From: Nostoc sp. UHCC 0870
GTDB lineage: Bacteria; Cyanobacteriota; Cyanobacteriia; Cyanobacteriales; Nostocaceae
Length of the DNA stretch: 64,000 nt
Direction of reading: 5' to 3'
Assembly (NCBI RefSeq): GCF_022063185.1
Contig: NZ_CP091913.1
Span: 3,794,001-3,858,000 of the forward strand
Positions within the stretch are counted from its first letter, which is position 1. Each line of letters opens with the position of its first letter. Under the pieces are notes generated by a model. That model saw only the letters and a program-made list of their open reading frames with translations. It did no database searches and was not told the DNA's origin. The position numbers and the translations under genes are program-made. This document shows positions 1 through 63,133 of the stretch, piece after piece.

Positions 1-569
1 GTCATGTTGCCCCCATAGTATAGGCTCATCACCAAAGCTTTTATTCCCGGACCGAATTCTCCTTCGTAACCGCAAGGCAGTTCTGCTAAATAGGTTTTTC
101 CCACTGAAGGTGAGTAGTATTTCTCTTTACGGAATAATACGTTGTCCGTTCCCAAGGTGATGTCTTGGATGATTACTTCTTGATAGCCTTTAAACTCTGC
201 GTCTGCTGGCAGTTTGTCCTGGGGATATTCCAATATTTGTTCTCTATTTATTTTAACTGTCGCTTTCTTACTGCCTTTGTTGTGCTTTTTTAGAGTCTGT
301 CGTTCTTTTTCTGATGAGTGATTGTTGGCAAATCCTTTCTTGCTGCTTTTGATGTCTGGTTGACCTTTTTCTCCTTTCAGGCGGTTGTTTTCATCTTTTA
401 ACTGTTGATTTTCATCTCGTAATTCTTTGACTTCTGCTTGCAATTGCTCTATTAGGTTCAGTAATATTTCTACTGTCCGACGCATTGATTCATCTGCAAT
501 TCCTTTTGGCTCGATGGTTTGCAGTATCTCTTCTCCCAATTTTTTACTCGAATCTAGCTTTTGCGTCAT
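1..569 (-). CDS. Transposase, N-terminal part (runs off the left edge), IS66-like
   Basis: An open frame starts at an ATG whose complement lies at 567-569 and stays open for 189 codons to the window edge. The N-terminus is a Glu/Lys/Gln-rich coiled coil (residues about 30-75), followed by a basic Ser/Lys stretch and a segment ending in FGPGIKALVMSLYYGGNMT. This layout of leader coiled coil, linker and FGPG..ALV segment resembles IS66-type transposases. No catalytic DDE residues fall inside the window, so the family call is tentative. The gene points away from the WD40 ATPase, whose 5' end is missing next to it, so this insertion sequence probably truncated that gene. The element boundary must lie between about 580 and 655; I could not identify its terminal inverted repeat. 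Confidence 0.6.
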   Translation of the reverse strand, partial: MTQKLDSSKKLGEEILQTIEPKGIADESMRRTVEILLNLIEQLQAEVKELRDENQQLKDENNRLKGEKGQPDIKSSKKGFANNHSSEKERQTLKKHNKGSKKATVKINREQILEYPQDKLPADAEFKGYQEVIIQDITLGTDNVLFRKEKYYSPSVGKTYLAELPCGYEGEFGPGIKALVMSLYYGGNM

Positions 570-708
570 GTGTCATATTTTATGATATTGCTTGTCCCTC
601 GCTGACTTTATTTTTTCTACTACCCCTACTTATTGAGCCGATACTTTTAATTTATATAGTGATTTTGATTTAGATGGTTGGTGGAATGAGAACGGTTTAA
701 TTTCACCA

Positions 709-3700
709 GTGCTGCGTTTTAGTAAGTTTATTGAAACGGTTTTATTAAAAAAAGTTAGCGAAAATATTGTTATTTTTATTGATGAAATTGATAGTGTTTT
801 AAGTCTGGCTTTTAATCTGGATGACTTTTTTGCAGTGATTCGGGATTGTTATAACCGACGGGCAGATCATCCTGAATATCATCGCATCACTTTTGCATTG
901 ATTGGGGTGTCTACTCCCTCAGATTTGATTCAAGATAAAGGACGCACGCCTTTTAATATTGGGAAAGCAATTGATTTAACAGGTTTTGAGTTAGATGAGG
1001 CTGAACCTTTGGCGCAGGGTTTGGCGGCGTTGGGGAATCCCCAAGAATTGATGGCGGCGGTGTTGGCGTGGACTGGTGGACAGCCGTTTTTAACCCAAAA
1101 AGTTTGTAATTTGTTGGTTGGGGATTGGGGACTGGGGATTGGGGAAGATGATGAGGGTGTAGAGGATGTTAAACAATCCAAAATCCAAAATCTAAAATCT
1201 AAAATTGCGGGGTTGGTGGAAGGTGTTGTCAGAAACCGAATTATTGAAAATTGGGAAGGACAAGATGAACCGGAGCATTTAAAGACAATTCGTGACAGAA
1301 TCATGCGGAGTGGGGAACAGCGCACGGGGCGGCTTTTGGGGTTGTGTCAGCAAATTGTGCAGCAGGGTGAAATAGTTGCTGATGATAGTTATGACCAGAT
1401 GACGCTGCGGTTGACTGGGTTGGTGGTCAGGCGGGATGGGAAGTTGCGAATTTATAACCGCATCTATGCAGAGGTGTTTCAGGAGGAATGGTGTAACAAT
1501 CTTTTAGCTAAGTTGCGTCCATATTCTGTTGCTTTTAATGCTTGGGTGGCTGCTGATTATCAAGATGAATCGCGGTTGTTACGGGGACAAGCTTTGCAAG
1601 AGGCTTTGGCTTGGCGCATTGGTAAAGGTTTGACTGATGTTGATGACCGATTTTTAGATGCTAGTCAGGAATTAGCAAGAAAAGAATTTGAGCGAGATTT
1701 AGAACTAGCTAAGAAAGAACAAGCGATATTAGCCGCAGCGAATAAAACAGCTAGGCAAAGAGTGCAAATTGCCTCGGTGTTGTTGTGCGTTTCGGTGGTG
1801 GCTACGGTGGGGTTGGGAGTTTTGGCGGGGAGAAGTAATCAACAATTGGCTACGGCGAGAAGTGAACGGGATAAAATTGATAGTGAGAAACAACAAAAAG
1901 AGCAAGAACTAACAACGGCACAGCAGCGAATTGTCAATGCTAATCAGAAGGTGACTGATGCAGAGAAAAAGGTCAGAGATGCTGAGGCTAATTTAAAAAA
2001 GCAACAGCTAACTGCCAAGCAAAGACTAGATGCCACAAATCGACAACTGGCACAAGCACAAGACAAAGAAAAGCAAGCGCGGGGACAAGTAGACAAGGCA
2101 CAAAACGACCTGCGAGAAGCGAAAGCACAACAGCAACAGGCTTTGGTGGGGTTAAAAACTGCGGAAGCACAGCAAAAACTGGCGCAAGATGATCTGAAAA
2201 AGACAGAAGCAGGGCGACAAGTTGCCTTGACAGGTACACGGCTGGAACGGTCAGGAGTCGCAAATATTAACCGCTTTGAATTTAATCAAATAGGGGCTTT
2301 GCTGGCAGCGATGCGGGATGGTCGAGAGCTAAAAAGTTTAATAGACAAGCAGGGAATTAAAAAACTCAAAGACTATCCTGCTGCTAGTCCTGTATTGGCT
2401 TTACAGACGATTTTAGATAGGGTGCGGGGCATGACAGTCATGGCTGGGCATGAGAGTATAGTCAATACTGCCAGTTTTAGCCCGGATGGGCAGCGCATCC
2501 TCACCGCCTCTTATGACAAGACAGCGCGGCTGTGGGACTTACAGGGCAGGGAAATTGCCAAGTTCCAGGGGCATGAGGGTCTAGTCAATACTGCCAGTTT
2601 TAGCCCGGATGGGCAGCGCATCCTCACCGCCTCAGATGACAACACAGCGCGGCTGTGGGACTTACAGGGCAGGGAAATTGCCAAGTTCCAGGGGCATGAG
2701 AGTGATGTCAATACTGCCAGTTTTAGCCCGGATGGGCAGCGCATCCTCACCGCCTCTTATGACAAGACAGCGCGGCTGTGGGACTTACAGGGCAGGGAAA
2801 TTGCCAAGTTCCAGGGGCATGAGGGTGTAGTCATAACTGCCAGTTTTAGCCCGGATGGGCAGCGCATCCTCACCGCCTCAGATGACAAGACAGCGCGGCT
2901 GTGGGACTTACAGGGCAGGGAAATTGCCAAGTTCCAGGGGCATGAGGGTGTAGTCATAACTGCCAGTTTTAGCCCGGATGGGCAGCGCATCCTCACCGCC
3001 TCAGATGACAAGACAGCGCGGCTGTGGGACTTACAGGGCAGGGAAATTGCCAAGTTCCAGGGGCATGAGGGTGTAGTCATAACTGCCAGTTTTAGCCCGG
3101 ATGGGCAGCGCATCCTCACCGCCTCAGATGACAAGACAGCGCGGCTGTGGGACTTACAGGGCAGGGAAATTGCCAAGTTCCAGGGGCATGAGAGTCTAGT
3201 CATAACTGCCAGTTTTAGCCCGGATGGGCAGCGCATCCTCACCGCCTCATCTGACAACACAGCGCGGCTGTGGGACTTACAGGGCAGGGAAATTGCCAAG
3301 TTCCAGGGGCATGAGAGTCTAGTCATAACTGCCAGTTTTAGCCCGGATGGGCAGCGCATCCTCACCGCCTCATCTGACAAGACAGCGCGGCTGTGGGACT
3401 TACAGGGCAGGGAAATTGCCAAGTTCCAGGGGCATGAGAGTACAGTCATAACTGCCAGTTTTAGCCCGGATGGGCAGCGCATCCTCACCGCCTCATCTGA
3501 CAAGACAGCGCGGCTGTGGGACTTACAGGGCAGGGAAATTGCCAAGTTCCAGGGGCATGAGAGTCTAGTCATAACTGCCAGTTTTAGCCCGGATGGGCAG
3601 CGCATCCTCACCGCCTCATCTGACAAGACAGCGCGGCTGTGGGACTTACAGGGCAGGGAAATTGCCAAGTTCCAGGGGCATGAGAGTACAGTCATAACTG

Positions 3701-4617
3701 CCAGTTTTAGCCCGGATGGGCAGCGCATCCTCACCGCCTCATCTGACAACACAGCGCGGCTGTGGGACTTACAGGGCAGGGAAATTGCCAAGTTCCAGGG
3801 GCATGAGAGTACAGTCATAACTGCCAGTTTTAGCCCGGATGGGCAGCGCATCCTCACCGCCTCATCTGACAACACAGCGCGGCTGTGGGACTTACAGGGC
3901 AGGGAAATTGCCAAGTTCCAGGGGCATGAGAGTACAGTCATAACTGCCAGTTTTAGCCCGGATGGGCAGCGCATCCTCACCGCCTCAGATGACAACACAG
4001 CGCGGCTGTGGGACTTACAGGGCAGGGAAATTGCCAAGTTCCAGGGGCATGAGAGTACAGTCATAACTGCCAGTTTTAGCCCGGATGGGCAGCGCATCCT
4101 CACCGCCTCAGATGACAACACAGCGCGGCTGTGGGACTTACAGGGCAGGGAAATTGCCAAGTTCCAGGGGCATGAGAGTACAGTCATAACTGCCAGTTTT
4201 AGCCCGGATGGGCAGCGCATCCTCACCGCCTCATCTGACAACACAGCGCGGCTGTGGGACTTACAGGGCAGGGAAATTGCCAAGTTCCAGGGGCATGAGG
4301 GTCTAGTCAATACTGCCAGTTTTAGCCCGGATGGGCAGCGCATCCTCACCGCCTCATCTGACAACACAGCGCGGCTGTGGGACTTACAGGGCAGGGAAAT
4401 TGCCAAGTTCCAGGGGCATGAGGGTCTAGTCAATACTGCCAGTTTTAGCCCGGATGGGCAGCGCATCCTCACCGCCTCAGATGACAAGACAGCGCGGCTG
4501 TGGCAGGTGGAAGGCTTGGAGAAATTACTGGCGCGGGGTTGTGGGTGGTTGCGTAACTATTTAACTTACGCGCCGAATTTAAGTGATGGTGATAAGCAGG
4601 TTTGCGAAAAGGAGTGA
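709..4617 (+). CDS. AAA-like ATPase with C-terminal WD40 repeats, 5'-truncated
   Basis: The frame belongs to the cyanobacterial AAA-like/WD40 family. It begins inside the ATPase domain: Walker B (IVIFIDEIDSVL, residues about 21-32) is present but the Walker A P-loop that should precede it is absent. Homologous codons continue upstream of the GTG at 709 (SDFDLDGWWNEN, 658-693) to a stop at 634-636, so the real N-terminus was lost, most likely through the adjacent insertion sequence. Order: residual ATPase (1-110), winged-helix-like region (about 180-270), one hydrophobic membrane span (about 355-375), long coiled coil (380-500), then 17 WD40 repeats (580-1265). An in-frame run of STRR-type sequence (1118-1210) lies in the ATPase part. 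Loss of the P-loop should abolish nucleotide binding, so it is either a pseudogene or only a WD40 platform. The long antisense frame over the repeats is a shadow. Confidence 0.8.
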   Translation: MLRFSKFIETVLLKKVSENIVIFIDEIDSVLSLAFNLDDFFAVIRDCYNRRADHPEYHRITFALIGVSTPSDLIQDKGRTPFNIGKAIDLTGFELDEAEPLAQGLAALGNPQELMAAVLAWTGGQPFLTQKVCNLLVGDWGLGIGEDDEGVEDVKQSKIQNLKSKIAGLVEGVVRNRIIENWEGQDEPEHLKTIRDRIMRSGEQRTGRLLGLCQQIVQQGEIVADDSYDQMTLRLTGLVVRRDGKLRIYNRIYAEVFQEEWCNNLLAKLRPYSVAFNAWVAADYQDESRLLRGQALQEALAWRIGKGLTDVDDRFLDASQELARKEFERDLELAKKEQAILAAANKTARQRVQIASVLLCVSVVATVGLGVLAGRSNQQLATARSERDKIDSEKQQKEQELTTAQQRIVNANQKVTDAEKKVRDAEANLKKQQLTAKQRLDATNRQLAQAQDKEKQARGQVDKAQNDLREAKAQQQQALVGLKTAEAQQKLAQDDLKKTEAGRQVALTGTRLERSGVANINRFEFNQIGALLAAMRDGRELKSLIDKQGIKKLKDYPAASPVLALQTILDRVRGMTVMAGHESIVNTASFSPDGQRILTASYDKTARLWDLQGREIAKFQGHEGLVNTASFSPDGQRILTASDDNTARLWDLQGREIAKFQGHESDVNTASFSPDGQRILTASYDKTARLWDLQGREIAKFQGHEGVVITASFSPDGQRILTASDDKTARLWDLQGREIAKFQGHEGVVITASFSPDGQRILTASDDKTARLWDLQGREIAKFQGHEGVVITASFSPDGQRILTASDDKTARLWDLQGREIAKFQGHESLVITASFSPDGQRILTASSDNTARLWDLQGREIAKFQGHESLVITASFSPDGQRILTASSDKTARLWDLQGREIAKFQGHESTVITASFSPDGQRILTASSDKTARLWDLQGREIAKFQGHESLVITASFSPDGQRILTASSDKTARLWDLQGREIAKFQGHESTVITASFSPDGQRILTASSDNTARLWDLQGREIAKFQGHESTVITASFSPDGQRILTASSDNTARLWDLQGREIAKFQGHESTVITASFSPDGQRILTASDDNTARLWDLQGREIAKFQGHESTVITASFSPDGQRILTASDDNTARLWDLQGREIAKFQGHESTVITASFSPDGQRILTASSDNTARLWDLQGREIAKFQGHEGLVNTASFSPDGQRILTASSDNTARLWDLQGREIAKFQGHEGLVNTASFSPDGQRILTASDDKTARLWQVEGLEKLLARGCGWLRNYLTYAPNLSDGDKQVCEKE
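2446..4503 (+). repeat. 17 near-identical 123-bp WD40-encoding tandem repeats
   Basis: The period is exactly 123 bp (41 codons): GHE first occurs at 2446 and the last GHE at 4414, which is 16 x 123 bp later. The 17th unit is partial and ends at TARLWQ. The units are almost identical at DNA level, including silent positions. Variation is confined to codons 4-7 of the unit (SI, GL, SD, GV, SL, ST, then VN or VI) and to the Y/D/S and K/N codons before TARLWD. This implies recent amplification or ongoing homogenisation. Confidence 0.95.
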
Positions 4618-5107: not shown

Positions 5108-7414
5108 ATGGCAAAAACAACCATCTCACTAGCGTCACCTCCTGTTCATAAGTCTTTAGAAGTTTTAGAGATACAGAGTGAAGAAGTATCCATAACTCAA
5201 ATAGCTACCTATCAGACATTAGAAAAAACCCCTAGTAAGGTGGTTAAATTTCATCAGCAGATGGCTCAAGTTAGCTATAGTATTGTCCATGCAGTTCCAG
5301 GTAGGTTACGCTGGCGTGTACCTCGGTTACGCTACGATACAGATTATGCAAAACGTCTATTAGCTTTATTAGAAGCTGATCCCCTCGTCACGCAGACTAG
5401 AATCAAAGTAGCTGCCGCATCTGTGGTTGTTATATATAAAAATAGTAAGATTACTGATATAAAAATGCGATCGCGCCTCATCTGTCTAATTGTGGCTGCT
5501 AGCGATCCGGGAATCGTCCCCCTCAATACTAAACAGTCATTAGCTGCACAGGAAGACAAAGAAGAAACACCCTGGCCAGGATTGCAACTTTCTGCATTAG
5601 CCACTGGTTTAGCCTTTCTGGGTGGGCCTTTGGGGGTATCAATTCCCCCCATCTTGACGGCGGGAACTATTGCTTTAGCCACATTACCCGTATTTCAAAG
5701 AGCGTTTGCAGGTATTACAACCCAACGTAAATTCACTATCGACTTCTTGGATTTTATCGCGATCGCCATTACTACAGTCCAAGGTCAGTTTCTCACACCA
5801 TCCCTGATGTTGAGTTTAATTGAGATTGGCGAAAATATCCGCGATCGCACCGCTCGTTCCTCCAAAATGCAAACCCTAGATTTGCTCAACTCTCTAGGAC
5901 AGTTTGTTTGGGTAGAACGTGATGGTGAGAAGGTGCAAATCCCCATTCAACAGGTACAAGCAGGAGATACAGTCATCGTTTATCCCGGCGAACAAGTCCC
6001 CGTAGATGGCAGCATTATTAAAGGTAAAGCACTCCTAGATGAGCAAAAGTTAACTGGTGAATCTGTACCTATTTTGAAAACCAAAGGACAGCCAGTATTT
6101 GCGTCCACTTTGGTACGGGAAGGACGGGTTTACATACTCGTGGAAAGGGTAGGTAACGACACCCGCGCCGGACAGAGTATCAAATTAATGCAGGAAGCAC
6201 CTGTCCATGATACCCGCATGGAAAACTACGCCATCAAATTTGCCGAAAAAGCCGTTGTGCCAACTCTCTTCTTAGGAGCAGTTGTATTTGCTGCTACCCG
6301 TAACCCTGCACGGGCAGCGAGTATTTTAACCCTTGATTTTGCCACAGGCATTAGAGTATCTGTACCCACAACCGTACTAGCTGCACTTTCCTATGCAGCC
6401 CGCCAAGGAATACTCATTCGCAGTGGTCGAGCCTTAGAACAACTAGCAGAAGTTGATACCATCGCCTTTGATAAAACAGGCACACTCACCCAAGGAGAAG
6501 TATCGGTAATTGCGGTTGAGAGTTACAATTCGGAAATATCTAGCGATCGCATCTTAGCACTAGCCGCCGCCGCCGAACAACGTTTAACTCATCCTGTCGC
6601 CGAGGCCGTGATTCGCTATGCCGAAGCCGAAAAAGTCCGTATTCCCAGCCGCAGCAAGTGGGATTACCAACTGGGATTAGGTGTAAAAGCTGAGATTGAT
6701 GGTGAGACTGTGTACGTTGGTAGCGAACGATTTTTGCGCCAACAAAACATTGATATGGAGGTAATTAACAGCAACGGACAAAAAGCCACATCGGTAATTT
6801 ATGTCGCCAGTAATGGACAACTTCAAGGTAGAATAAAGTATAGTGATGTTCTCCGCCCAGAGAGTCGGGAAGTCATCTCCCAACTGATGAATATAGAAGG
6901 TGTGGAGGTGCATATGCTGACTGGTGACAACAAGCGCACAGCACAAGCTGTAGCAACTGAATTGGGCATTGCGCCCAGCCATACTCACGCAGAAGCTTTT
7001 CCAGAACAAAAAGCAACAGTAGTCCGTCAACTGCACGAACAAGGTAAAACAGTAGCATTTGTGGGGGATGGAATCAACGACTCCCCAGCTTTAGCCTACG
7101 CCGATGTATCTGTATCCTTTGCCCACGGTTCAGAAATCGCCCGTGAAACAGCAGACTTGGTGTTAATGCAGAATGACTTACATGGATTATTAGCAGCGAT
7201 CGCGATCGCTCGTCAAGCCAAGCACTTAATTCATCAAAACACTGGTATTGTTGCTGTACCTAACTTGGGAGCATTAATCATCGCTGTGTTGTTTGGTTTG
7301 AACCCCCTAACAGCAACAGTAGTTAACAACGGCTCAACCATAGTTGCTGGAGTCAACGGCTTACGCCCAATTCTTAAACATTCATCTCAAAAAGCTCTGC
7401 CATTAGGAAGATGA
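5108..7414 (+). CDS. Heavy-metal P1B-type ATPase lacking the CPC motif
   Basis: A membrane ion pump of 768 residues. An HMA2-like N-terminal domain (about 55-125) carries VPGRLRWRV instead of the metal-binding GMTCxxC. Membrane helices follow (about 160-230). The actuator motif TGES is at 316-319, the phosphorylated Asp at 455 (DKTGTLT), a THP motif near 500, and the hinge GDGINDSP at 653-660. All catalytic P-type ATPase motifs are therefore intact. At the ion site in the sixth helix, where P1B pumps carry CPC, the sequence is F411-A-T413 (context DFATGIRVSVPTT), so neither Cys nor the kink Pro is present. The transported ion cannot be assigned. The two small genes downstream (DUF5132-like and HMA2-like) lie on the same strand and probably act with it. 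One alternative is a non-transporting or non-copper pump of a divergent cyanobacterial subgroup. Confidence 0.88.
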   Translation: MAKTTISLASPPVHKSLEVLEIQSEEVSITQIATYQTLEKTPSKVVKFHQQMAQVSYSIVHAVPGRLRWRVPRLRYDTDYAKRLLALLEADPLVTQTRIKVAAASVVVIYKNSKITDIKMRSRLICLIVAASDPGIVPLNTKQSLAAQEDKEETPWPGLQLSALATGLAFLGGPLGVSIPPILTAGTIALATLPVFQRAFAGITTQRKFTIDFLDFIAIAITTVQGQFLTPSLMLSLIEIGENIRDRTARSSKMQTLDLLNSLGQFVWVERDGEKVQIPIQQVQAGDTVIVYPGEQVPVDGSIIKGKALLDEQKLTGESVPILKTKGQPVFASTLVREGRVYILVERVGNDTRAGQSIKLMQEAPVHDTRMENYAIKFAEKAVVPTLFLGAVVFAATRNPARAASILTLDFATGIRVSVPTTVLAALSYAARQGILIRSGRALEQLAEVDTIAFDKTGTLTQGEVSVIAVESYNSEISSDRILALAAAAEQRLTHPVAEAVIRYAEAEKVRIPSRSKWDYQLGLGVKAEIDGETVYVGSERFLRQQNIDMEVINSNGQKATSVIYVASNGQLQGRIKYSDVLRPESREVISQLMNIEGVEVHMLTGDNKRTAQAVATELGIAPSHTHAEAFPEQKATVVRQLHEQGKTVAFVGDGINDSPALAYADVSVSFAHGSEIARETADLVLMQNDLHGLLAAIAIARQAKHLIHQNTGIVAVPNLGALIIAVLFGLNPLTATVVNNGSTIVAGVNGLRPILKHSSQKALPLGR

Positions 7415-8816: not shown

Positions 8817-8878
8817 CGTACTCCCCGCGATGAATCAACGGGGATTCTAGTTCATTTGTTTTCCGGCGGGATAAATCC

Positions 8879-8995
8879 CCACTCAGCACTCAGCACTCAG
8901 CACTCCCAACTCCCCACTCAGCACTCCCAACTCCCCACTCAGCACTCCCCACTCAGCACTCAGCACTCAGCACTCCCCACTCAGCACTCCCTAAC
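8879..8995. repeat. STRR heptamer array (CTCAGCA / CTCCCCA type)
   Basis: About 115 bp of heptamer units such as CACTCAG, CACTCCC and CAACTCC. It separates the HMA2-like gene from the 3' end of the nitrilase-family gene. It overlaps a 62-codon frame that I regard as non-coding. Confidence 0.8.
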
Positions 8996-9806
8996 TAAAT
9001 ACTCGGTGTTGCAGAGAAGGCATTTGACGGCGGACTTGTTCTAAACGTGAGGGATTAATTTCGGCGATCGCCACTCCCGGTTTATCTCCAGCATCAGCTA
9101 AAATTGTTCCCCAAGGGTCAATAATTACCGCGTGTCCGTGGGTGAGACGACGACCGTAGTTATTGCCTGTTTGGGCTGGAGCAATTACGTAGGCTGTATT
9201 TTCAATTGCTCTAGCTTGTAGTAATACTTGCCAGTGGTCTTTACCTGTAAACGCAGTAAAAGCGGCAGGTATAAAAATCACATCTACACCCTTGGTTGAC
9301 AGATGGCGATAGAGTTCAGGGAAGCGGACATCATAGCAAATAGACACACCGATATTTCCCAAAGTTTCCGAGAAATAGACGGGGGGTAGTTGCTCACCGG
9401 CTACCACTGTACTAGATTCGCGGTAGGTATTACCATCAGGAACATTCACATCAAACAGATGAACTTTATTGTAATGGGCGAGTTCTTCACCACTAGGGTC
9501 AAGCAAAATCGTAGTGTTATAGACCTTACCCGTATCTCCGACAGGCACAGGAAAGCTACCGCCTAAGATCGTAATTTGGTAGCGTTGCGCCATTTTTTTG
9601 ATGAAAATTTCACTTTCATGGGCGATCGCTTCTGCTTGTGCCAGTTTATCTTTTTCCTCTCCCATAAAAGAAAAATTTTCTGGCAACCCCACCAACTCTG
9701 CACCTCGGCGCACAGCCAGATCAATTAATTCTTCAGCTTGTACCAAATTCTTTTGTAAATCTGGCACACTGGTCATTTGAATAGCGGCGGCTAAATAAGA
9801 CTTCAT
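8991..9806 (-). CDS. Carbon-nitrogen hydrolase (nitrilase superfamily, Nit-like)
   Basis: 271 residues from the ATG at 9806 (MKSYLAAAIQMTS), preferred over an ATG 15 bp upstream because family members begin at this strand. The Glu-Lys-Cys catalytic triad is recognisable: Glu in LVGLPENFSF, Lys in HYNKVHLFDV and Cys in ISICYDVRFPEL (written VSICYDVRFPEL here). The motifs resemble the Nit1/Nit2 group, whose members hydrolyse omega-amides or deaminated glutathione, but the substrate is not provable from sequence. A soluble cytosolic enzyme is expected. The 3' end runs into an STRR array. Confidence 0.88.
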   Translation of the reverse strand: MKSYLAAAIQMTSVPDLQKNLVQAEELIDLAVRRGAELVGLPENFSFMGEEKDKLAQAEAIAHESEIFIKKMAQRYQITILGGSFPVPVGDTGKVYNTTILLDPSGEELAHYNKVHLFDVNVPDGNTYRESSTVVAGEQLPPVYFSETLGNIGVSICYDVRFPELYRHLSTKGVDVIFIPAAFTAFTGKDHWQVLLQARAIENTAYVIAPAQTGNNYGRRLTHGHAVIIDPWGTILADAGDKPGVAIAEINPSRLEQVRRQMPSLQHRVFS

Positions 9807-17267: not shown

Positions 17268-17648
17268 GATAACGGAGTGGTGAGTTATGAGTGCTGAGTA
17301 GTGAGTGCTGTTAGCGGTAGCGCGGCGTTTAGCCGGTGCTGAGTGCTGAGTTATGAGTTATGAGTCTTGAGTTATGAGTCTTGAGTTATGTGTGCTGAGT
17401 TATCTGTTGTTTATTCTTAGCTTGAGTCACTAGTACAGAACGGCGGAAATAAACAGACCATTCCAAATCAATGAAACGCTTACGCTGTATTCATTTTGAA
17501 TTTTGTTAGCGCAGCGTTAGCGAGTCCGCGAGCGTCATTTTGAATTTTGAATTCCGCCTTGCGGTACTAGATGATTAGTTCAACATCTTATTGTTACAGC
17601 GCGTTAGGATAGTTAATTAGGTATGGCTAAATAAATAGAAATTTACCA
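17268..17648. repeat. Spacer of STRR heptamers and dispersed repeats
   Basis: 17275-17400 consists of GAGTGCT, GAGTTAT and GAGTCTT units plus one GCTGTTAGCGGTAGCGCGGC block (17308-17327) that recurs at 18319, 18356 and 23457. 17495-17560 has TTTTGAATTTTG repeats. No gene. The promoter of the PPOX-family gene should lie near 17580-17640. Confidence 0.7.
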
Positions 17649-22718: not shown

Positions 22719-24178
22719 TTACTCCATGTCCTCAATTCCTCACTCACAATCTGTGCTATTTTATCTGCTGCGCCGCTTTCGCCTCTAACGCTTTTTAGCT
22801 TATTTCGGATATCTGCCAATTTTTCTGGATGAGTCAAAAAGTCTAAAATCATTTCTCCAACTTCTTCTGGGTGCAGTTTACCTATTAATTCTGGGACTAT
22901 TTCTGCTTTAGCCCAGATATTCGGCCAAGCTAATAACCCTTTGCGTCTGAGAAATAACCAGTTAATGATTTTGGCGAAGGTAGAACCCAAACCTGGCAAA
23001 TTAGCTAACAATCCTGGTAAACCATCCCAAGAACGCATAGCATCGAGTTGTTGTGTGGGTAATAACACAACCATTGGTACACCTAAAGCACCCAACTCGG
23101 CTGTATTTGCTCCGACTGTAGTTAGGCAGATAGAACAATCAGATAATAAGTCATAGGCAGGATTTTCTTGGTGTAGCTCTACATTTAATCCCTTACCTGT
23201 TTTCAATATCGGTTTTTGATGACTTTGTTCTGGGACAACTAAGGAAGCACCAGAGAAGTTAAAAGTTTCTACAAAAGGGTTTTTTTGGGAATCGGCAAAA
23301 CTGGCTAGAGTTGGTAAATCCAAAGTTGGGGCGACGGGAATTACAAACTTTGTTTGGGGTGCTTTGCTGTGGATATATTCAGCGATCGCTAAAAATAACG
23401 GTACTCCTTGGGTTAATTTTGCAGCTTTTGACCCTGGTAAAATACCAATGAGTGCTGTTAGCGGTAGCGGGGCGTTTAGCCCGTGCTGAGTGCTGAGTGC
23501 TGAGTTAGGAGTGCTGAGTGCTGAGTTGTGAGTGCTGAGTACTGAGTTAGGAGTGCTGAGTGCTGAGTTAGGAGTGCTGAGTGCTGAGTTAGGAGTGCTG
23601 AGTGCTGAGTTAGGAGTGCTGAGTGCTGAGTTAGGAGTGCTGAGTGCTGAGTTAGGAGTGCTGAGTTGTGAGTTAGGAGTTTTGAGTTGTTTTTGGGCTT
23701 CTAGCATTAGGTCTCCCACGACTGTAAATTTGTGAATATATTTAGGGGAGACTTTGGCTGTTAATTCTGGGTTCATGACTGCGAAGCGGTCAATTAAGTT
23801 ATGCCATCTGGCTTCCCATTCGGCGTAAACTACTGTGCGATATCCGAGTTTTTTACTGATGACTACAGGGAAAAATTGGTCGCCACCTAAGAAAACAATT
23901 ACACCGCGATCGCGCCAATCCCAATTTTCAAAGGTTTTACCCCACAGCAAAAATTGCCAAAAATGCTCTGCTGCTTGCACTCGGTCTACTTCTGGATAAG
24001 AAAGTGCGATCGCGGCTTCTTTTCCACTAGCATTTGGACATGGTGACAAAACTACGGAAACACGTACCTCCTCACGGTTGTTCCCTAGCTGTTCTCGCAA
24101 TGCTTTGACTACTGGACGCACCCAGGTTGTCACTTCTCCTGGTCCATTGGAAAGAATGAGAATGTCTACTGGAGTCAT
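22715..24178 (-). CDS. Lipid-A-disaccharide synthase-related glycosyltransferase (LpxB-like), with in-frame STRR insertion
   Basis: 487 residues. The N-terminus (VDILILSNGPGEVTTWVRPVVKAL) and the GT-B type C-terminal half (YDLLSDCSICLTTVGANTAELGALGVPMVVLLP) match cyanobacterial LpxB-related proteins. Its reaction may be a glycosyl transfer in envelope glycolipid synthesis, but the substrate is unproven. Residues about 160-240 are made of nine copies of a seven-residue unit close to TPNSALS, followed by LNAPLPLTAL. This is pure intergenic-type repeat DNA (23457-23700) read in frame between the two Rossmann halves. The insertion is probably tolerated as a linker. The gene is followed, after a short gap, by the 5'-upstream murF on the same strand. 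Confidence 0.8.
   Translation of the reverse strand: MTPVDILILSNGPGEVTTWVRPVVKALREQLGNNREEVRVSVVLSPCPNASGKEAAIALSYPEVDRVQAAEHFWQFLLWGKTFENWDWRDRGVIVFLGGDQFFPVVISKKLGYRTVVYAEWEARWHNLIDRFAVMNPELTAKVSPKYIHKFTVVGDLMLEAQKQLKTPNSQLSTPNSALSTPNSALSTPNSALSTPNSALSTPNSALSTPNSVLSTHNSALSTPNSALSTQHGLNAPLPLTALIGILPGSKAAKLTQGVPLFLAIAEYIHSKAPQTKFVIPVAPTLDLPTLASFADSQKNPFVETFNFSGASLVVPEQSHQKPILKTGKGLNVELHQENPAYDLLSDCSICLTTVGANTAELGALGVPMVVLLPTQQLDAMRSWDGLPGLLANLPGLGSTFAKIINWLFLRRKGLLAWPNIWAKAEIVPELIGKLHPEEVGEMILDFLTHPEKLADIRNKLKSVRGESGAADKIAQIVSEELRTWSN
23457..23700 (-). repeat. 21-bp (3 x 7) STRR array inside the lpxB-like gene
   Basis: Nine 21-bp units read as TPNSALS variants, plus a GCTGTTAGCGGTAGCGGGGC block shared with the spacers near 17308, 18319 and 18356. 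Because 21 is a multiple of 3, copy number can change without shifting the frame. Confidence 0.9.
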
Positions 24179-28551: not shown

Positions 28552-31188
28552 ATGACAACCTCACAGGAGAGGATTATCCCGACGGATCTGCGGAATGAAA
28601 TGTCCCGGTCTTATCTGGAATACGCCATGAGTGTGATCGTGGGCAGGGCGTTACCAGATGCCAGGGATGGTCTCAAACCTGTGCATCGCCGCATCCTCTT
28701 TGCTATGCACGAGTTAGGGCTAACCCACGATCGCCCATTTAGAAAGTGCGCCCGTGTAGTCGGGGAAGTGTTGGGTAAATATCACCCCCACGGCGATACG
28801 GCAGTATATGATGCGTTGGTGCGGATGGCGCAGGATTTTTCCATGCGATCGCCATTAATTAACGGACATGGTAACTTTGGTTCAGTAGATAACGACCCGC
28901 CGGCGGCAATGCGTTACACTGAATGCCGCTTGCAAGCTTTAACCAGTGCTTCCCTGCTGCAAGATATTGAATCAGAAACCGTTGATTTTATTGATACCTT
29001 TGACGGTTCTCAACAAGAACCCACAGTTTTACCTTCACGGATTCCCCAATTACTTCTCAATGGTTCTTCGGGGATTGCGGTGGGGATGGCTACCAACATT
29101 CCCCCCCACAATTTAGGCGAACTGATTGATGGGTTGGTGGAAGTGATTCATAATCCCGAAATCACTGATTTGGAGTTAATGCAGTTTGTCCCAGGGCCAG
29201 ACTTTCCCACTGGGGCGCAAATTCTGGGGACAGCCGCGATTAAAGAGGCTTACACCACAGGCCGCGGTTCAATCACCATGCGCGGTGTCGCCAACATTGA
29301 AACCATTGAACAGAGAGGCCGTCCCGACAGGGAAGCCATCATCATCACCGAATTACCCTATCAAACCAACAAAGCGGCATTAATTGAAAAAATTGCCGAG
29401 TTGGTGAATGACAAGCGGATTGACGGAATTGCAGATATCCGGGATGAAAGCGATCGCGACGGGATGCGAATCGTGATCGAACTCAAGCGTGATGCTTATC
29501 CCCGCGTGGTTTTAAATAACCTCTACAAACAAACACCACTGCAAGCCAACTTTGGCGCGAATATGTTGGCGTTGGTGAATGGCGAACCCCAAATTCTCAG
29601 CCTGAAGCAGTTCTTTCATGTCTTCCTAGATTTCCGTATAGACGCAATTACAAGACGCACCCGTTACGAATTGCGAAAAGCGGAAGAACGTGATCACCTT
29701 TTACAAGGTTTATTAATTGCTCTATCCCAATTAGATGCAATTATTAACTTAATTCGTCACGCGCCCGATGCACCCACCGCTAAAGGTGAGTTAATCACCA
29801 CCTATGGACTTTCGGAAGTGCAAGCCGATGCGATTTTACAAATGCAGCTACGGCGGTTAACTGCTCTAGAAGCCGATAAAATCCGTCTAGAACATGAGGA
29901 CTTACAGACACGGATTGCCGACTTACAGGATATTTTGGCACGGCGGGAACGGATTTTAGAAATCATTGAAACCGAAATCAGCCAAATCAAAACCAGCTTT
30001 GCTACACCCCGGCGCACCGTGATTACCCACGCCGAAGGGGAAATAGACGAACGCGACTTGATTGCTAATGAAAAAGCTCTAATTCTGGTGACAGAACAAG
30101 GCTACATCAAACGGATGCCAGTTAACACCTTTGAGGCGCAAAGCCGTGCTACCAGAGGTAAAGCCGGCGCGAAGGTGAAAGACGATGACAACATTGAGCA
30201 TTTCTTAACTTGCTGTGATCATGACAGCATTTTATTCTTTAGCGATCGCGGTGTCGTCTACTGTCTCAAAGCCTATCAAATCCCCGTGGGTTCTCGCACC
30301 AGTCGCGGTACACCCATTGTGCAGTTGCTACCCATCCCCAGAGAAGAAAAAATTACTTCGATTGTCCCTGTGGATGAGTTTAGCAGTGAAGAATATCTAG
30401 TAATGCTGACCAAAGGCGGCAATATTAAGAAAACCGTATTAGCAGCCTTCAGTCATATTCGCGCCAATGGTTTGATTGCAATTTCCTTAGAAGAAGGCGA
30501 TCAACTGCGCTGGGTACGTCGCGCCAGAGTCGAAGATAGCGTCATCATCGGTTCTCGTCATGGGATGGCAATTCATTTTAGATGTAACCATGAACAACTG
30601 CGTCCTTTAGGTAGAGCAACTCGTGGAGTAAAATCCATGAAACTCAAAAAAGGTGATGAACTCGTCGGGATGGATATTCTACCGGCGGCGATTCTAGAGA
30701 CTTTAGATACAGAGGAAGTGGATACCGAAGAAATCGAAACCATTGAAGAAGTAGAAACCACCGAAGAAATCGAAAACACTGAAGTTACAGGTAACGTCAG
30801 CGTTGGCCCTTGGGTGTTAGTCATCACAATGGGAGGATACGGTAAGCGCGTTCCAGTCGCCCAATTCCGCCTACAAAATCGGGCTGGACAAGGCTTGATG
30901 GCGACTAAATTCAAAAACCGCAAAACCAAAGACAAGTTAGCCACTCTAGGTATTGTCAACAGTGACAATGAAATCATGATGGTAACAAGTCGCGGTATCA
31001 TCATTCGGCAAGCGGTGAATGCAATTTCTATCCAATCCCGTTCTGCAACTGGGGTGAGAGTGCAACGCCTCGACGAAGATGACGTAATTAATGGAGTAGC
31101 GATCGTTCCTCCTGATACAGCTGATACAGCCGATACAAGCGATGCAGCCGACGCAGGCGACACAGCCGACATAGAAGAGGTGGAATGA
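28552..31188 (+). CDS. gyrA: DNA gyrase subunit A
   Basis: 878 residues. Gyrase A cuts and rejoins DNA for negative supercoiling. The winged-helix/tower N-terminus is typical ([20 protein letters not shown], then the quinolone region [20 protein letters not shown] and the active-site Tyr in [10 protein letters not shown]). At the E. coli Ser83 position there is Thr and at Asp87 there is Asp. The C-terminal beta-pinwheel follows, with a GyrA-box-like [10 protein letters not shown] instead of the enterobacterial QRRGGKG. An acidic insert (about 722-750, repeated TEE/IEE) interrupts the pinwheel, and the last residues are a run of DTAD/DAAD repeats. It overlaps lnt by 4 bp. A ParC assignment is possible, but the box and length favour GyrA. 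Confidence 0.93.
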
Positions 31189-32915
31189 AGTCAAAAGTCA
31201 AAAGTCAAAAGGCAAAAGAAATTTTCCCTTTTGTACTCTACCTTTTACTTGCTCTTACCAGTGGGGTTCTGATGGGGTTAACCGTCGCCCCTGTGGGTGC
31301 ATGGTTCTTGGCTTGGGTAGCCCTCGCCCCCCTCTGGGTAATGGTTGTAGAAAAAAGTCAAAATTTAGAGGGTAGAAGAAACAAGTTATTTCTTTTACCT
31401 TTTTCCTTTTACCTTGTGCCTTTACTCTGGGGTATTGGTTATCACGGTGTCGCCTTATTCTGGATTACCGGCATTCATCCGATGGATTGGTTGGGTGTAC
31501 CTTGGTGGCCGAGTTTAGCCATTACCTTTTTTTGCTTATCATTCATTAGCCTCTGGGGGGGAATTTTTGCAGCAATTTGGGCAGGTGCGATCGCCTGTTT
31601 CAATCTGCAAAAATCGCTACCACGTATCCTAATTGGTACAGCAATTTGGTGCGGCTTAGAAAGCCTGTGGAGTGCCGGCCCCTTGTGGTGGAGTTCTCTA
31701 GCTTACACCCAGAGTCCGCATAATCTCGTAATTTTACACCTGGGGCAACTATCGGGGCCAAATACTGTCACTGCTGCTATTGTCGCCATCAATGGCTTAA
31801 TTGCTGAAGCATGGATTAATTACCAGCAAGCTAGCAATAAACGTGATGAATCACACAATAAAGATTTATTCCCTTACACCCCTACACCCCCACACCCCTA
31901 CACCCCTACACCCCTACACCCCTACACCCCCACACCCCTACACCCCTACACCCCTACACCCCTACACCCCTACACCCCTACACCTTTCAAATATTTAGCG
32001 ATCGCCACAGGTTTATTAATTACCCTACACCTGATTGGTTTTTTATTATACACTCGCCCCATCGCCCAACCTCCAGCCGCCACCTTGAAGGTGGGGATTA
32101 TTCAGGGAAATATTCCCAACAAAATTAAACTGCTTCCCGAAGGAGTCCAACGCGCCATTAGAGGTTACACCGAGGGATATTTAACCTTAGTTAATCAAGG
32201 CGTTGATGCTGTTCTGACTCCAGAAGGGGCAATGCCTTTTTTTGACAAAGATTTAGCAGTTACTCCCCTAGTTGCAGCCATAGAAGACAAAGGTGTAATT
32301 GCTTGGGTTGGGGCTTTTGGGAGAAAGGGACGGAGTTACACCAACAGTTTATTTACAGTCAACGGCCAAGGTGAACTTACCAGCCGCTACGATAAATCTA
32401 AGTTAGTACCCTTGGGTGAATACATTCCTTTTGAGGAAATTTTGGGTGCAATTATTCAGCGTTTATCGCCACTAGATGAACATCAAGTACATGGTTCACC
32501 CAACCAAATTTTTGATACTCCCTTCGGTCGGGCAATTGTCGGGATTTGTTACGAATCGGCATTTCCCGAAGTATTTCGCCGTCAAGCAGCAGAAGGTGGA
32601 GAATTTATCCTCAGTGCTTCCAACGATGCCCATTACAGTGCTGCTATGCCATTCCAGCACCATGCTCAGGATATCATGCGAGCAATTGAGACTGATAGAT
32701 GGTCAGTCAGAGCGACCAACACCGGATATTCAGCCTTTGTTGATCCCCACGGTAAAACCCTGTGGATGTCTGGATATAATACCTACGAAACCCAAGCCGC
32801 AACTATCTACCGACGACAGAGCAAAACTTTATATGTGCGTTGGGGTGATTGGTTGACACCATTGTTATTAGGGTTGGGGTTGATAGCATTTGCCAACTGG
32901 TGGAGATCCAGTTAA
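31185..32915 (+). CDS. lnt: Apolipoprotein N-acyltransferase with in-frame repeat insertion
   Basis: 576 residues, longer than the usual 500-530. Lnt puts the third acyl chain on lipoproteins at the outer face of the inner membrane. Several hydrophobic helices fill the first 200 residues, and the nitrilase-type domain has Glu (LTPEGAMPF), Lys ([12 protein letters not shown]) and Cys ([13 protein letters not shown]). The ATG overlaps the gyrA stop as ATGA, so translation is probably coupled. The N-terminus ([11 protein letters not shown]) is itself encoded by CAAAAGT-type repeat DNA. Between the fifth helix and the last helix before the catalytic domain lies a Pro/Thr/Tyr/His segment of about 40 residues, encoded by an octamer repeat. 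Confidence 0.92.
31867..31985 (+). repeat. ACCCCTAC octamer array inside lnt
   Basis: About fifteen 8-bp units. An 8-bp unit cycles through all three frames, so the peptide repeats every 24 bp as PYTPTPLH. Only changes of three units keep the frame. All three frames are free of stops, which is why a shadow frame also runs through it. Confidence 0.9.
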
Positions 32916-40105: not shown

Positions 40106-40106
40106 T

Positions 40107-40184
40107 GGGGATTGGGGACTGGGGATTGGGGATTGGGGACTGGGGATTGGGGACTGGGGATTGGGGACTGGGGATTGGAGTAAA
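40107..40184. repeat. GGGGATT/GGGGACT STRR array
   Basis: About eleven heptamers of GGGGATT or GGGGACT type between the convergent psb28 and dprA genes. Similar units occur in frame inside the WD40 ATPase (1118-1145) and cobN. Confidence 0.85.
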
Positions 40185-55114: not shown

Positions 55115-55118
55115 ATAG

Positions 55119-55181
55119 GGGACAGGGGACAGGGGACAGGTGACAGGTGACAGGGGACAGGTGACAGGTGACAGGGGGACA
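55119..55181. repeat. GGGACAG/GTGACAG STRR array
   Basis: About nine heptamers of GGGACAG or GTGACAG type just after gpsA. The same heptamers occur in frame in cobN (62505-62595 and 59870-59910). Confidence 0.85.
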
Positions 55182-55763
55182 GCTTATATATTTTTAAGCT
55201 AAACCTATACATTGCTAGGAGGAAATATGAAGACAGGTTGAGTGAATGCTAACTAAGTGTGAAGTGTTGATGAAAAAGTGCTAACTGTGAACAATTTAAT
55301 AATTGAAAGTATCACTTGTAACAGACTACTCAAGCACCTATGATCATCTATATACCTTGATTTATTCCCAAAAAATCCCTAGAAAAAATTAGAAAATCGT
55401 CAGGAAATCACTTTCATATCCATGTAGATGTGACTATACCGATGAGGAATATGATTTCCACTGAAATATGTTTATACAAAATACCAAAGTAGCAATTAAT
55501 ATCTATCAATGTTGAAATGCTGACTCGGTAGTTCGGAATTTAAAGCCTGATTGTGTACTTGAATAGCTATTGGTTCAATCAAAAGTTCAGCAGCCGAGTC
55601 TAGTTCGGTTTTCATGCTTGACAGAGAACCAGTAAATTGTTTCGCAAAAAAAACATTACTGGAATTCTCAACCGTGTTAGTTAATCTAAAATCACGGGAA
55701 CAATAGCAACAGTTAAATAGCTGACCGCAATCTATTGTTACCTGGAGCCATAGAGACGATTTT
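55182..55763. other. Long leader region upstream of sigC
   Basis: About 580 bp, AT-rich, no gene. It must hold the sigC promoter(s) and a leader; no box could be supported by reading alone. Confidence 0.4.
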
Positions 55764-62200: not shown

Positions 62201-63133
62201 AACTTGCAATACAGGAACATCTAATTTTTCCCACAGTTCAGTCTGGGGTGTTTCTGTATCTAACCGTGCCAAGGAAAAGCTAGTGGTATTGAGTAATACT
62301 GAAACTTGCTCTGAGTTCTGACCTTGAAAAAACTGCATTAACTCTGTTTGCACATCAGGGTCACGCAAAGAAGAAACAAACACAGGCAAAGGTTGTAAGT
62401 TTCTTTGCGCCAAAGCCGCACACAACGCATCAATAACTTTAGTATTTCCCGCCAAATAGTGAGCGCGGTAAAACAATATACCGACTTTAGGAATTGAGCA
62501 TGGCACATTGGGGTAAAATCTCCCCTGCTCCCCTGCTCCCCTCTCACCTGTCACCTGTAACCTGTCACCTGTAACCTGTAACCTGTCCCCTAAATACACC
62601 CCCACACGGGGAACTCGTTGCGGTGGTGCTGGATTATATACAGTGGCTAAACATTTATCACTGATAAACTGGAGAGCGTTAACAAAATTTTCTACGCCGC
62701 CTTCATTGAAATACTGCCATATTTGGTTAACAGTAGTCGCAGGCAAGGTAGACTGAGAAAACAATTCAGGATCGAGCGCATCGTCTCCTGGCATTACAAT
62801 TAGGTGTACACCATTACGTTGCACAATTTCCTGCACTATTTCTAAACCGTAAGCCCAATAGGAACGTCCTCCTATCAGGCGCAAAATGATTACTTGGGCA
62901 AGTTCTAAAACTTGTTCTGCGTAAGTATCAATGCTTATTTGTTGCTGCAACAGTAATAAATTCGCTACTCTCAATGCAGGAAATGTTGTAGGTAATTGGG
63001 GAACTGTAGCAGCCAGGGTTTGAATGTCGGTATCAGCAGCCGTAATAAATACAAAGCTAGCTGGGGTTTGTTCTAGAAAAATAACACCTTCTGACTGGTT
63101 CAATCCTACCGATGTTGTACTTAAACGATGCAT
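59240..63133 (-). CDS. cobN: Cobaltochelatase subunit CobN (CobN/Mg-chelatase H family)
   Basis: 1297 residues. The large chelatase subunit that binds the corrin (or related tetrapyrrole) for cobalt insertion. Family words: ILRLIGGRSYWAYGLEIVQE near the start, ANYPNRDGRLANGVGLDTPA, VHVGKHGNLEWLPGKSLALS (conserved metal-site region), IFGQCPQGRQLRDLIVAIAR, LGLSVWGTATMRTGGDDIAE and VMRHGYKGAFEMSATVDFVF. Cyanobacteria generally lack CobST and may use the ChlI/ChlD ATPases. Three segments are foreign repeat DNA read in frame (62505-62595, 61580-61660, 59795-59910), apparently in surface loops, since the flanking family motifs remain. Confidence 0.9.
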   Translation of the reverse strand: MHRLSTTSVGLNQSEGVIFLEQTPASFVFITAADTDIQTLAATVPQLPTTFPALRVANLLLLQQQISIDTYAEQVLELAQVIILRLIGGRSYWAYGLEIVQEIVQRNGVHLIVMPGDDALDPELFSQSTLPATTVNQIWQYFNEGGVENFVNALQFISDKCLATVYNPAPPQRVPRVGVYLGDRLQVTGDRLQVTGERGAGEQGRFYPNVPCSIPKVGILFYRAHYLAGNTKVIDALCAALAQRNLQPLPVFVSSLRDPDVQTELMQFFQGQNSEQVSVLLNTTSFSLARLDTETPQTELWEKLDVPVLQVILSGGFLEQWEALSQGLSPRDIAMNVALPEVDGRIISRAVSFKAVQTHHPDLETDVVVYEPVSDRIEFVAELAANWVKLRAKPPQERKIALILANYPNRDGRLANGVGLDTPASCIEILKALQAEGYLVENPPTNSDELIARLTAGVTNDPEGRDWRPVQQSLSTAEYQEYFASLPEIVQQGIGERWGTEDWGLEGQQSNSQFPIPGIQLGNVFVGIQPSRGYDLDPSLNYHAPDLEPTHNYLAFYYWVRECFGSNAIVHVGKHGNLEWLPGKSLALSSTCYPEVAFGAMPHLYPFIVNDPGEGSQAKRRAQAVIIDHLTPPMTRAELYGALQKLENLIDEYYEAESLDPSRLPALRDRIRELVIQENLYKDLGIQDEKEILNFESLILNSLDGYLCELKEAQIRDGLHIFGQCPQGRQLRDLIVAIARIPNRYSPGITRSLADDWGLDLDPLTADFSSELSLSDKQILAQKTQNPCHTAGDAVTTLEEHAASLVEQLITNLKLSSPVPNSLNWINAKLLPALQQTQMEITHLLRGLDGKYIPSAPSGAPTRGRPEVLPTGRNFYSVDIRAIPTETAWDVGRKAAENLIECYTQEHGEYPKTLGLSVWGTATMRTGGDDIAEALALLGVRPVWDGAARRVIDLEILPLSILARPRVDVTLRISGFFRDAFPNLMDLFEQAVNAVAALDEPPDQNPIAAQVKQDTDFWLQQGLTSETALARSLYRIFGSKPGAYGAGLQGLMESQNWQDDQDLAQAYINWSCYAYSSGDRLQVTGDRTGGSVGEAGGEIQPNTQSPVPNPEAFTQRLGQMQIVLQNQDNREHDLLDSDDYYQFQGGLTAAVRSIQGKNPETYFGDNSIPSQPRVRQLKSEIARVYRSRVVNPKWIEGVMRHGYKGAFEMSATVDFVFAYDATARCVENYMYQGVMQAYLLDSVVCDFIQEKNPHALRDIAEKLLEAHKRGLWQDVNIQTLDTLRNLVHQAEAAIEEK
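59795..59910 (-). repeat. In-frame repeat tract in cobN (C-terminal)
   Basis: Codes for SSGDRLQVTGDRTGGSVGEA followed by NTQSPVPNPEA. It contains CACCTGT/AACCTGT heptamers and GGGGACT units. Confidence 0.8.
61580..61660 (-). repeat. In-frame repeat tract in cobN (middle)
   Basis: Codes for RWGTEDWGLEGQQSNSQFPI and contains GGGAATT and CCCCAGT-type units. Confidence 0.7.
62505..62595 (-). repeat. In-frame repeat tract in cobN (N-terminal)
   Basis: CACCTGT/AACCTGT heptamers, read as GDRLQVT repeats, then CTCCCCTG units read as GERGAGEQG. Confidence 0.85.

What the first reader, a model, noticed from the sequence alone, without database searches (positions are those of the whole stretch)
2446..4503. 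Seventeen WD40 units nearly identical in DNA, variable only at a few codons
The 123-bp units keep even silent sites, but codons 4-7 and the two before TARLWD differ between units. Such patterned variation on a homogenised background resembles hypervariable WD40 arrays of fungal NLR-like proteins, where the variable residues line the propeller surface and decide recognition. Seventeen units do not divide into seven-blade propellers, so copy number may be in flux.
Basis: partly seen in the sequence, partly recalled or inferred. Interest (0 to 1): 0.6.

Follow-up and report, generated by a model that had tools for sequence, protein, structure and literature searches.

The report
Hypervariable WD40 sensor, gene now broken
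A cyanobacterium carries a gene with seventeen nearly identical propeller blades that differ only at and beside predicted partner-binding residues, much like fungal self/non-self receptors; it belongs to a kind already described in Nostoc, and in this strain an inserted mobile element has cut the gene in two.

Summary
Window 2446-4503 holds 16 full 123-bp WD40 units and a 90-bp 17th; all amino-acid variation falls in codons 4, 5, 7, 23 and 25. Codons 5, 7 and 23 fit R1-2, R1 and D-1, the published top-face binding positions. In 12 other highly repetitive arrays the same five positions rank highest in mean entropy. This gene and three relatives carry 17, 16, 11 and 15 units and share no 30-residue unit. 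Best reading: tandem amplification and homogenisation, with diversifying selection on one face.

A CHAT-AAA_35 gene lies upstream, as in five relatives. The kind is known: Nostoc WRAP and other highly repetitive prokaryotic WD40 proteins; fungal HNWD receptors are analogues. A transmembrane helix before cysteine-poor arrays ending in a cysteine pair suggests a sensor outside the cytoplasm. Function is inferred.

The parts
1..644 (-). Right-hand part of an IS66-family element (1793 bp, L009:8852-10644; the rest lies left of the window). Transposase ORF: window 3-569 and beyond.
   Evidence: PF03050 hit of the 569-aa ORF; element ends, 18 of 25 outer bases matching as inverted repeat, eight identical copies in the genome.
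645..652 (.). Right copy of the 8-bp target-site duplication; the left copy is L009:8844-8851
   Evidence: the flanks printed for the seven other copies also show 8-bp duplications. Insert plus one duplication = 1801 bp, frame remainder 0.
645..4617 (+). 3' part of the interrupted AAA_35-TM-linker-WD40 gene, open to the stop at 4615-4617 (the ORF caller's start is GTG 709)
   Evidence: intact relatives have P-loop motif and array in one frame; the P-loop segment here is L009:8563-8851.
667..1104 (+). Remainder of the AAA_35 domain, without the P-loop
   Evidence: PF14516, 71.9 bits (cut-off 27), profile positions 98-239 of 331. The separated N-terminal fragment matches positions 4-71 with 22.6 bits, below the cut-off.
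1768..1824 (+). Predicted transmembrane helix IASVLLCVSVVATVGLGVL
   Evidence: Kyte-Doolittle mean 2.52 over 19 residues; similar helix in relatives. Hydropathy only; no topology program was run.
1825..2445 (+). K/E/Q-rich linker (coiled-coil-like by eye, not tested) and lead-in to the array; its last residues would give the velcro strand
   Evidence: Translation; velcro role is inference.
2446..4503 (+). Array of 17 WD40 units of 41 residues (30 in the last), variable at codons 4, 5, 7, 23, 25
4540..4605 (+). C-terminal tail with a conserved cysteine pair, CGWLRNYLTYAPNLSDGDKQVC

Best explanation
The array is the sensor domain of a two-gene CHAT/AAA_35 conflict-type system of cyanobacteria. 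Shown by sequence: near-identical blades, variation confined to predicted top-face binding residues and two neighbours, different blade numbers and different binding residues in relatives, an adjacent CHAT-AAA_35 gene, and an IS66 element splitting this copy. Inferred: unequal exchange, slippage or gene conversion amplifies and homogenises the blades, while selection for changed recognition keeps new residues at positions 4, 5, 7, 23 and 25. In an intact protein the propellers would bind a changing partner, alter the state of the AAA_35 NTPase and thereby the CHAT caspase-like partner. In this strain the IS separated the P-loop-bearing N-terminus from the rest, so the array is probably an inactive remnant.
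For: Window array: N 10, S 1 in five codons against N 0, S 1 in 25. In 13 arrays of at least 0.7 identity, from 12 loci, hot codons show N/S 214/35 against 93/153 elsewhere (Fisher 1e-29); ranked by mean entropy in the 12 other than the window, positions 23, 5, 4, 7, 25 come first. Window plus three relatives: 58/6 against 15/27, p 3e-9. R1-2, R1 and D-1 are the top-face binding positions. Homogenisation: mean backbone silent difference is 0.012 within the window array, 0.214 to G012's and 0.175 to G004's. Turnover: no identical 30-residue unit in any of six pairs of four arrays, one shared triplet in each of two pairs. Partner: CHAT plus AAA_35 beside this gene and beside five of five genus relatives scanned. 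IS66 with duplication, phase kept.
Against: No ligand, phenotype or expression data. Within G012 the backbone silent difference (0.264) is as large as between species, so homogenisation is not continuous everywhere. Silent difference between species is smaller in the array (0.175-0.214) than in the non-repeat part (0.350 and 0.410 from the window gene), which I cannot explain with certainty. The window array has the poorest repertoire of the three rarefied, which may be drift. In 4 of the 13 arrays not all five positions are among the six most variable. Step counts treat related changes as independent, so p-values are descriptive; the hot codons were chosen on the window array, so only the other arrays test them.
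Confidence: 0.62

Rival explanations
1. Neutral tandem amplification: a young array of a stable blade, with variation tolerated on the surface and no diversifying selection.
For: Silent identity fits very recent amplification; the blocky order fits simple duplication. For Nostoc WRAP, recent amplification is the published reading of absent synonymous changes (PMC9218822, section 12). The gene is interrupted here.
Against: Surface tolerance should admit many exposed positions, yet the same five lead in the other arrays, with N/S about 6:1 there against about 0.6:1 elsewhere.
Confidence: 0.2
2. Non-immune multivalent scaffold or adhesin: the propellers hold other proteins, or polymers outside the membrane, and the variable residues tune partners.
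For: Helix and cysteine pair suggest an extracytoplasmic domain; WD40 proteins are often scaffolds (general knowledge).
Against: The CHAT-AAA_35 neighbour and the turnover of binding residues between relatives fit recognition of a changing partner better.
Confidence: 0.15
3. Targeted hypermutation by a diversity-generating retroelement acting on the hot codons.
For: In the window array codons 4 and 23 vary at bases 1 and 2 with a fixed third base; such elements diversify putative conflict sensors in multicellular bacteria (PMC10907252, passages).
Against: All 8 matches of a 246-bp two-unit query in the 7.17-Mb assembly lie in the array itself, so no template repeat was seen. Codons 5 and 25 do not keep a fixed third base. 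A reverse transcriptase was not searched for.
Confidence: 0.02
4. Assembly artefact: wrong copy number or collapsed repeats.
For: Contigs of other strains end inside such arrays (L058, L060, L069) or hold an N run there (L059).
Against: The window lies in a 6.42-Mb contig of a 12-contig assembly; G012 and G004 have 5 and 3 contigs, G018 has 5. No reads were seen, so the exact number 17 is unverified.
Confidence: 0.05

Closest known systems
WRAP (Npun_R6612, Nostoc punctiforme; PDB 2YMU)
   Same: 41-residue period (gapless match over 569 residues), near-identical blades C-terminal to an NTPase, two-gene arrangement with a second NTPase that carries an effector domain, almost no silent change; best PDB match by sequence and by Foldseek (PMC9218822 and PMC6805158 passages and one section)
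   Different: WRAP has 14 blades and 10 point changes, six of them Trp to Arg at one position; here 17 units vary at five codons. WRAP's partner carries TIR; here CHAT. Orthology of the whole proteins was not tested. This copy is split by an IS.
Highly-Repetitive (HR) WD40 proteins (Hu et al. 2017, PMC5587647)
   Same: Internal identity above 0.7; conserved backbone with diversity at predicted hotspot sites (section 11 read, passages elsewhere)
   Different: Hu et al. report the class in bulk, in what I read; the codon-level N/S contrast and unit-by-unit comparison with relatives are added here.
Fungal HNWD receptors HET-D, HET-E, HET-R (Podospora)
   Same: Concerted, length-variable WD40 arrays with a few codons under diversifying selection on the interaction surface (PMC12222747, passages). 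Their positions 10, 11, 12, 14, 30, 32, 39 would equal 3, 4, 5, 7, 23, 25, 32 here if their unit starts seven residues earlier; I could not confirm that offset
   Different: Those have a NACHT and a HET domain in the same protein; here AAA_35, a predicted membrane helix and a separate CHAT partner, in a bacterium.

Membership tests
Highly-Repetitive WD40 (Hu et al. 2017) | At least six of any eight contiguous repeats with pairwise identity of 0.7 or more | tested here: met
   Lowest pairwise identity of units 1-16 is 0.878 over 41 residues; definition from PMC5587647 passages.
WRAP-type system (Dunin-Horkawicz 2014, as described in PMC9218822) | Near-identical WD40 blades at the C-terminus of an NTPase protein | tested here: met
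   AAA_35 remainder in the window ORF, AAA_35 N-termini in intact relatives L038 and L039, array. Whether AAA_35 counts as STAND was not tested.
WRAP-type system (Dunin-Horkawicz 2014, as described in PMC9218822) | Adjacent second NTPase gene with a TIR, or TIR plus caspase, domain | tested here: not met
   Adjacent gene is CHAT plus AAA_35, the only two Pfam families at E of 0.001 or better. It works like WRAP; I do not file it as WRAP proper.
WRAP-type system (Dunin-Horkawicz 2014, as described in PMC9218822) | Whole-protein orthology to Npun_R6612 | not tested
   Only the blades were compared with 2YMU.
Fungal HNWD NLR | NACHT domain and HET-type effector in the same protein | tested here: not met
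   AAA_35 is the only Pfam family in the scanned part before the array, for the window ORF and for intact N-termini (460 residues each) of L038, L039, L010, L011.
Fungal HNWD NLR | Diversifying change at a few propeller-surface codons on a homogenised background | tested here: met
   an analogy of mode, not membership. No population-level dN/dS was possible.
IS66 family element | DDE_Tnp_IS66 transposase, terminal inverted repeats, 8-bp target duplication (8 bp recalled) | tested here: met
   accessory ORFs tnpA and tnpB were not looked for.
Diversity-generating retroelement target | Template repeat elsewhere in the genome | tested here: not met
   All 8 matches of the two-unit DNA at E of 0.001 or better lie within the array.

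The most novel reading that the evidence does not exclude
Cyanobacteria such as Nostoc carry a class of membrane-spanning, NLR-like receptors: a hypervariable WD40 propeller array displayed outside the cytoplasm (one helix, positive-inside, cysteine-poor array, terminal cysteine pair), joined to a cytoplasmic AAA_35 or other NTPase and, in trans, a CHAT protease, with the sensor exchangeable for a periplasmic-binding-protein domain. The blades turn over so fast that relatives share almost no binding residues, and copies can be switched off by insertion elements.
Probability: 0.3. Interest if true: 0.68.

Novelty: new member of a known kind. Interest (0 to 1): 0.42.

Why it matters
It is a clean bacterial case of the logic known from fungal non-self receptors: identical scaffold, changing contact residues, changing copy number. 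Amplification plus selection could make a diversifying sensor without a retroelement. This gene and its relatives, with 17, 16, 11 and 15 units, give a natural series. If the array faces outside the cytoplasm, its ligand should be sought among envelope, phage or neighbour-cell molecules rather than in the cytosol.

Tried and rejected
A retroelement source of the variation: the two-unit DNA has no copy in the own assembly outside the array; a reverse transcriptase was not searched for.

Burial of the variable residues could not be measured: the AlphaFold2 model of the array (767 aa, 3 rows; mean pLDDT 80.2, pTM 0.53) came without coordinates, and its blade-to-propeller partition is unreliable. 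2YMU matches with TM-score 0.34 (query) and 0.43 (target) over 615 columns at 22.7 A, while single propellers match more closely (5NNZ_A 4.4 A, target TM-score 0.79; 5MZH_B 3.5 A, 0.64). Exposure therefore rests on the published R1-2/R1/D-1 rule. How 17 blades divide was not settled.

A model that I built for the AAA_35 part served only to list ORFs; the column printed there as a score was an E-value and is not used. The first unit regex missed the 42-residue arrays and was widened. PADLOC names the intact relative's array protein 'HEAT-ARM_XIII' and NCBIfam 'TolB', below cut-off; I take these as repeat cross-hits.

Rows dropped: one search left out L009 (part of the same array), L067 (duplicate of L066) and ORFs with fewer than four usable units (from one search's list: L058, L063, L069, L071, L072). 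One search dropped five ORFs (four with fewer than 4 units, one duplicate); its 2x2 table used 40 of 47 ORFs, those with at least 12 residues after the array. Its four 'cysteine pair without helix' rows are L053 and L062, whose hydrophobic segment holds a charged residue (1.80 and 1.77), L064 (an ORF that starts at the array) and L078 (1.36). The cysteine-pair pattern was written after seeing sequences, the ORFs are related, and the mean of 1.02 Cys per 100 residues in the 14 helix-less arrays comes mainly from 5 of them (the other 9 have 0 to 0.36), so those p-values are descriptive.
Full report
Observation. The window lies at 3,794,001-3,858,000 of a 6.42-Mb contig of a 7.17-Mb genome in 12 contigs. 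Named relatives of the gene are cyanobacteria, among them Nostoc, Anabaena and Cylindrospermum. Bases 2446-4503 hold 16 full 123-bp units and a 17th of 90 bp, in frame. Among the 17 units, codons 1-30 vary only at 4, 5, 7, 22 (silent), 23 and 25.

Which positions vary. In WD40 blades R1 is the residue of the b-a bulge that follows a V/L/I, R1-2 lies two before it, and D-1 precedes the tetrad Asp; these are widely used for binding on the top face (PMC3419727, abstract and passages). In the unit G-H-E-4-5-V-7-T-A-S-F...S22-23-D24-25-T...W30, R1 is codon 7, R1-2 codon 5 and D-1 codon 23; codons 4 and 25 are neighbours. This assignment is mine from the published rule; the residue after R2 is Ala here where the rule expects V, L or I.

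Chance and selection. Of 28 arrays with at least four usable units, 13 (from 12 loci; L059 gives two pieces) have mean identity of 0.7 or more over 30 residues. Ranking the 30 positions by mean entropy in the 12 other than the window gives 23, 5, 4, 7, 25 first; in 9 of the 13 all five are among the six most variable, in 4 (L010, L040, L042, L060) they are not. Minimum-step counts in the 13 are N 214, S 35 at hot codons and N 93, S 153 elsewhere. For the window array and those of G012, G004 and G018 they are 58/6 and 15/27. This is the pattern expected of diversifying selection on a conserved frame; the tests treat steps as independent and are descriptive.

Relatives. In the genus, 10 of 13 genomes, the own one included, have a match at E of 1e-100 or better to the non-repeat part. 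Those that match it to residue 574 or beyond with at least 59% identity carry 16 (G012, 84%), 11 (G004, 77%), 4 (G009, 63%), 14 (G011, 61%) and 14 (G007, 59%) units; two shorter matches of 60-64% (L043, L044) carry 14 each. In the family, 4 of 118 genomes, the own one included, match at E of 1e-190 or better; of these G018 has 14 regular units and one divergent. L039, L040 and L041 appear to share a neighbouring ORF (similar N-terminal sequences, judged by eye), yet hold 11 units of the 41-residue type and 4 and 14 of a 42-residue type, so the array seems to have been replaced, not just edited. Between the window array, G012, G004 and G018 (14 units used), no 30-residue unit is shared in any of six pairs, and one R1-2/R1/D-1 triplet is shared in each of two pairs. 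Mean backbone silent difference is 0.012 within the window array, 0.095 within G004 and 0.264 within G012, and 0.175-0.214 between these arrays; in the non-repeat part it is 0.350 and 0.410 from the window gene to G012 and G004. The window array was homogenised or amplified very recently; G012's was not. No nucleotide of codons 1-30 is fixed differently between the window array and G012's, and four are between it and G004's, so independent amplification is only partly indicated. Blocks of identical neighbours in the window suggest several rounds, whereas the authors of PMC9218822 thought that recent WD40 arrays appear to arise in one event (section 12).

The gene is broken. The 1302-aa ORF lacks the P-loop: it matches AAA_35 profile positions 98-239. 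Outside the window, L009:8563-8851 encodes the N-terminus with GQFCYVLNSRQMGKSSL (AAA_35 positions 4-71, below the cut-off), and a 1793-bp element with an IS66 transposase lies between. It has imperfect terminal inverted repeats and an 8-bp duplication and is identical to seven other copies in the genome, whose printed flanks also show 8-bp duplications. Insert plus one duplication is 1801 bp, with frame remainder 0 between the two sides. Relatives G012 and G004 have P-loop motif and array in one frame. So the insertion looks recent and specific to this lineage. The array's repertoire is the poorest of three (8 triplets in 17 units; 6.6 when rarefied to 11, against 8.6 in G012 and 11 in G004; G018 has 10 in 14 units). 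Whether that came before or after the insertion cannot be told.

Partner and paralogues. The gene just upstream, L009:6797-8410, is CHAT plus AAA_35 by Pfam, as is the neighbour of the gene in all five genus relatives scanned (L038-L042); L009's and L038's also hit the PADLOC CHAT profile. The same genome has a pair L010 (an AAA_35 gene without CHAT hit and a 14-unit AAA_35-WD40 gene), an AAA_35-WD40 gene L011 for which I saw no such partner within the 8 kb fetched, and a pair L012 in which the C-terminal domain is Peripla_BP_6 instead of WD40, beside another CHAT-AAA_35 gene.

Topology. Between NTPase and array lies a hydrophobic helix (window 1768-1824). Of 47 WD40 ORFs with at least four units in the loci examined, 33 have such a helix upstream of the array. 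Among the 40 with a C-terminal tail, 28 have helix and terminal cysteine pair, 2 helix only, 4 pair only and 6 neither (Fisher 0.0012). Arrays behind a helix hold 0.08 Cys per 100 residues on average, arrays without one 1.02 (driven by 5 of 14), and the part before the helix 1.23. In 19 of 21 helix-bearing ORFs with the P-loop motif there are more K/R in the 15 residues before the helix than after it; in 2 the numbers are equal, and in the window ORF, not among the 21, they are 3 and 3. With the periplasmic-binding-protein paralogue this suggests that the array lies outside the cytoplasm. Extracellular receptor domains on cyanobacterial metacaspases have been predicted before (CHASE2; PMC3501461 passages). 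I saw no statement of this topology for WRAP-type arrays in the passages read of PMC9218822, PMC5587647, PMC3501461 and PMC2853523 or in the listings; the 2014 primary paper was not read.

Mechanism. Shown: repeat homogeneity, confined variation, turnover, gene neighbours, IS. Inferred: the propeller top faces bind a changing partner; binding alters the AAA_35 NTPase and the CHAT partner; recombination within the array supplies variants. The ligand, the membrane side and the response are unknown.

Comparison. The best sequence and Foldseek match in the PDB is 2YMU, the WRAP propeller of Npun_R6612: 14 blades forming two seven-bladed propellers. Hu et al. already noted hotspot diversity in highly repetitive WD40 proteins, and fungal HNWD receptors follow the same logic. 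The finding is therefore a new member of a known kind, with a CHAT partner, an unusual blade number and a natural insertion mutation.

Noticed in passing
L012:2573-5320 (-) and 5354-6943 (-): Paralogous pair in the same genome where a Peripla_BP_6 domain replaces the WD40 array behind AAA_35, beside a CHAT-AAA_35 gene: a sensor swap.
   Followed up: partly
Window 4540-4605 and the C-termini of related loci (e.g. L010, L011, L038, L076, L080, L084): A C-terminal cysteine pair (C..hhxxYL...C) ends most helix-bearing WD40 ORFs examined, including ORFs without the AAA_35 P-loop motif.
   Followed up: partly
Window 1-644, L009:8852-10644 and L030, L032-L037: Eight identical copies of a 1793-bp IS66 element with 8-bp target duplications, suggesting recent transposition in this genome.
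   Followed up: partly
Window 8876-8996, 17275-17403, 23488-23687, 40106-40178, 55117-55182, 62540-62591: Short tandem tracts with 7-, 14- or 21-bp periods in several places.
   Followed up: no
Window 49956-50193 and 31871-31984: 12-bp tandem repeat (about 20 copies) within ORF 48010-50856, and an 8-bp repeat (about 14 copies) within ORF 31185-32915.
   Followed up: no
L058, L059, L060, L069: Contigs of other strains end inside such WD40 arrays (L058, L060, L069) or hold an N run there (L059), so their true unit numbers are not readable from these records.
   Followed up: no
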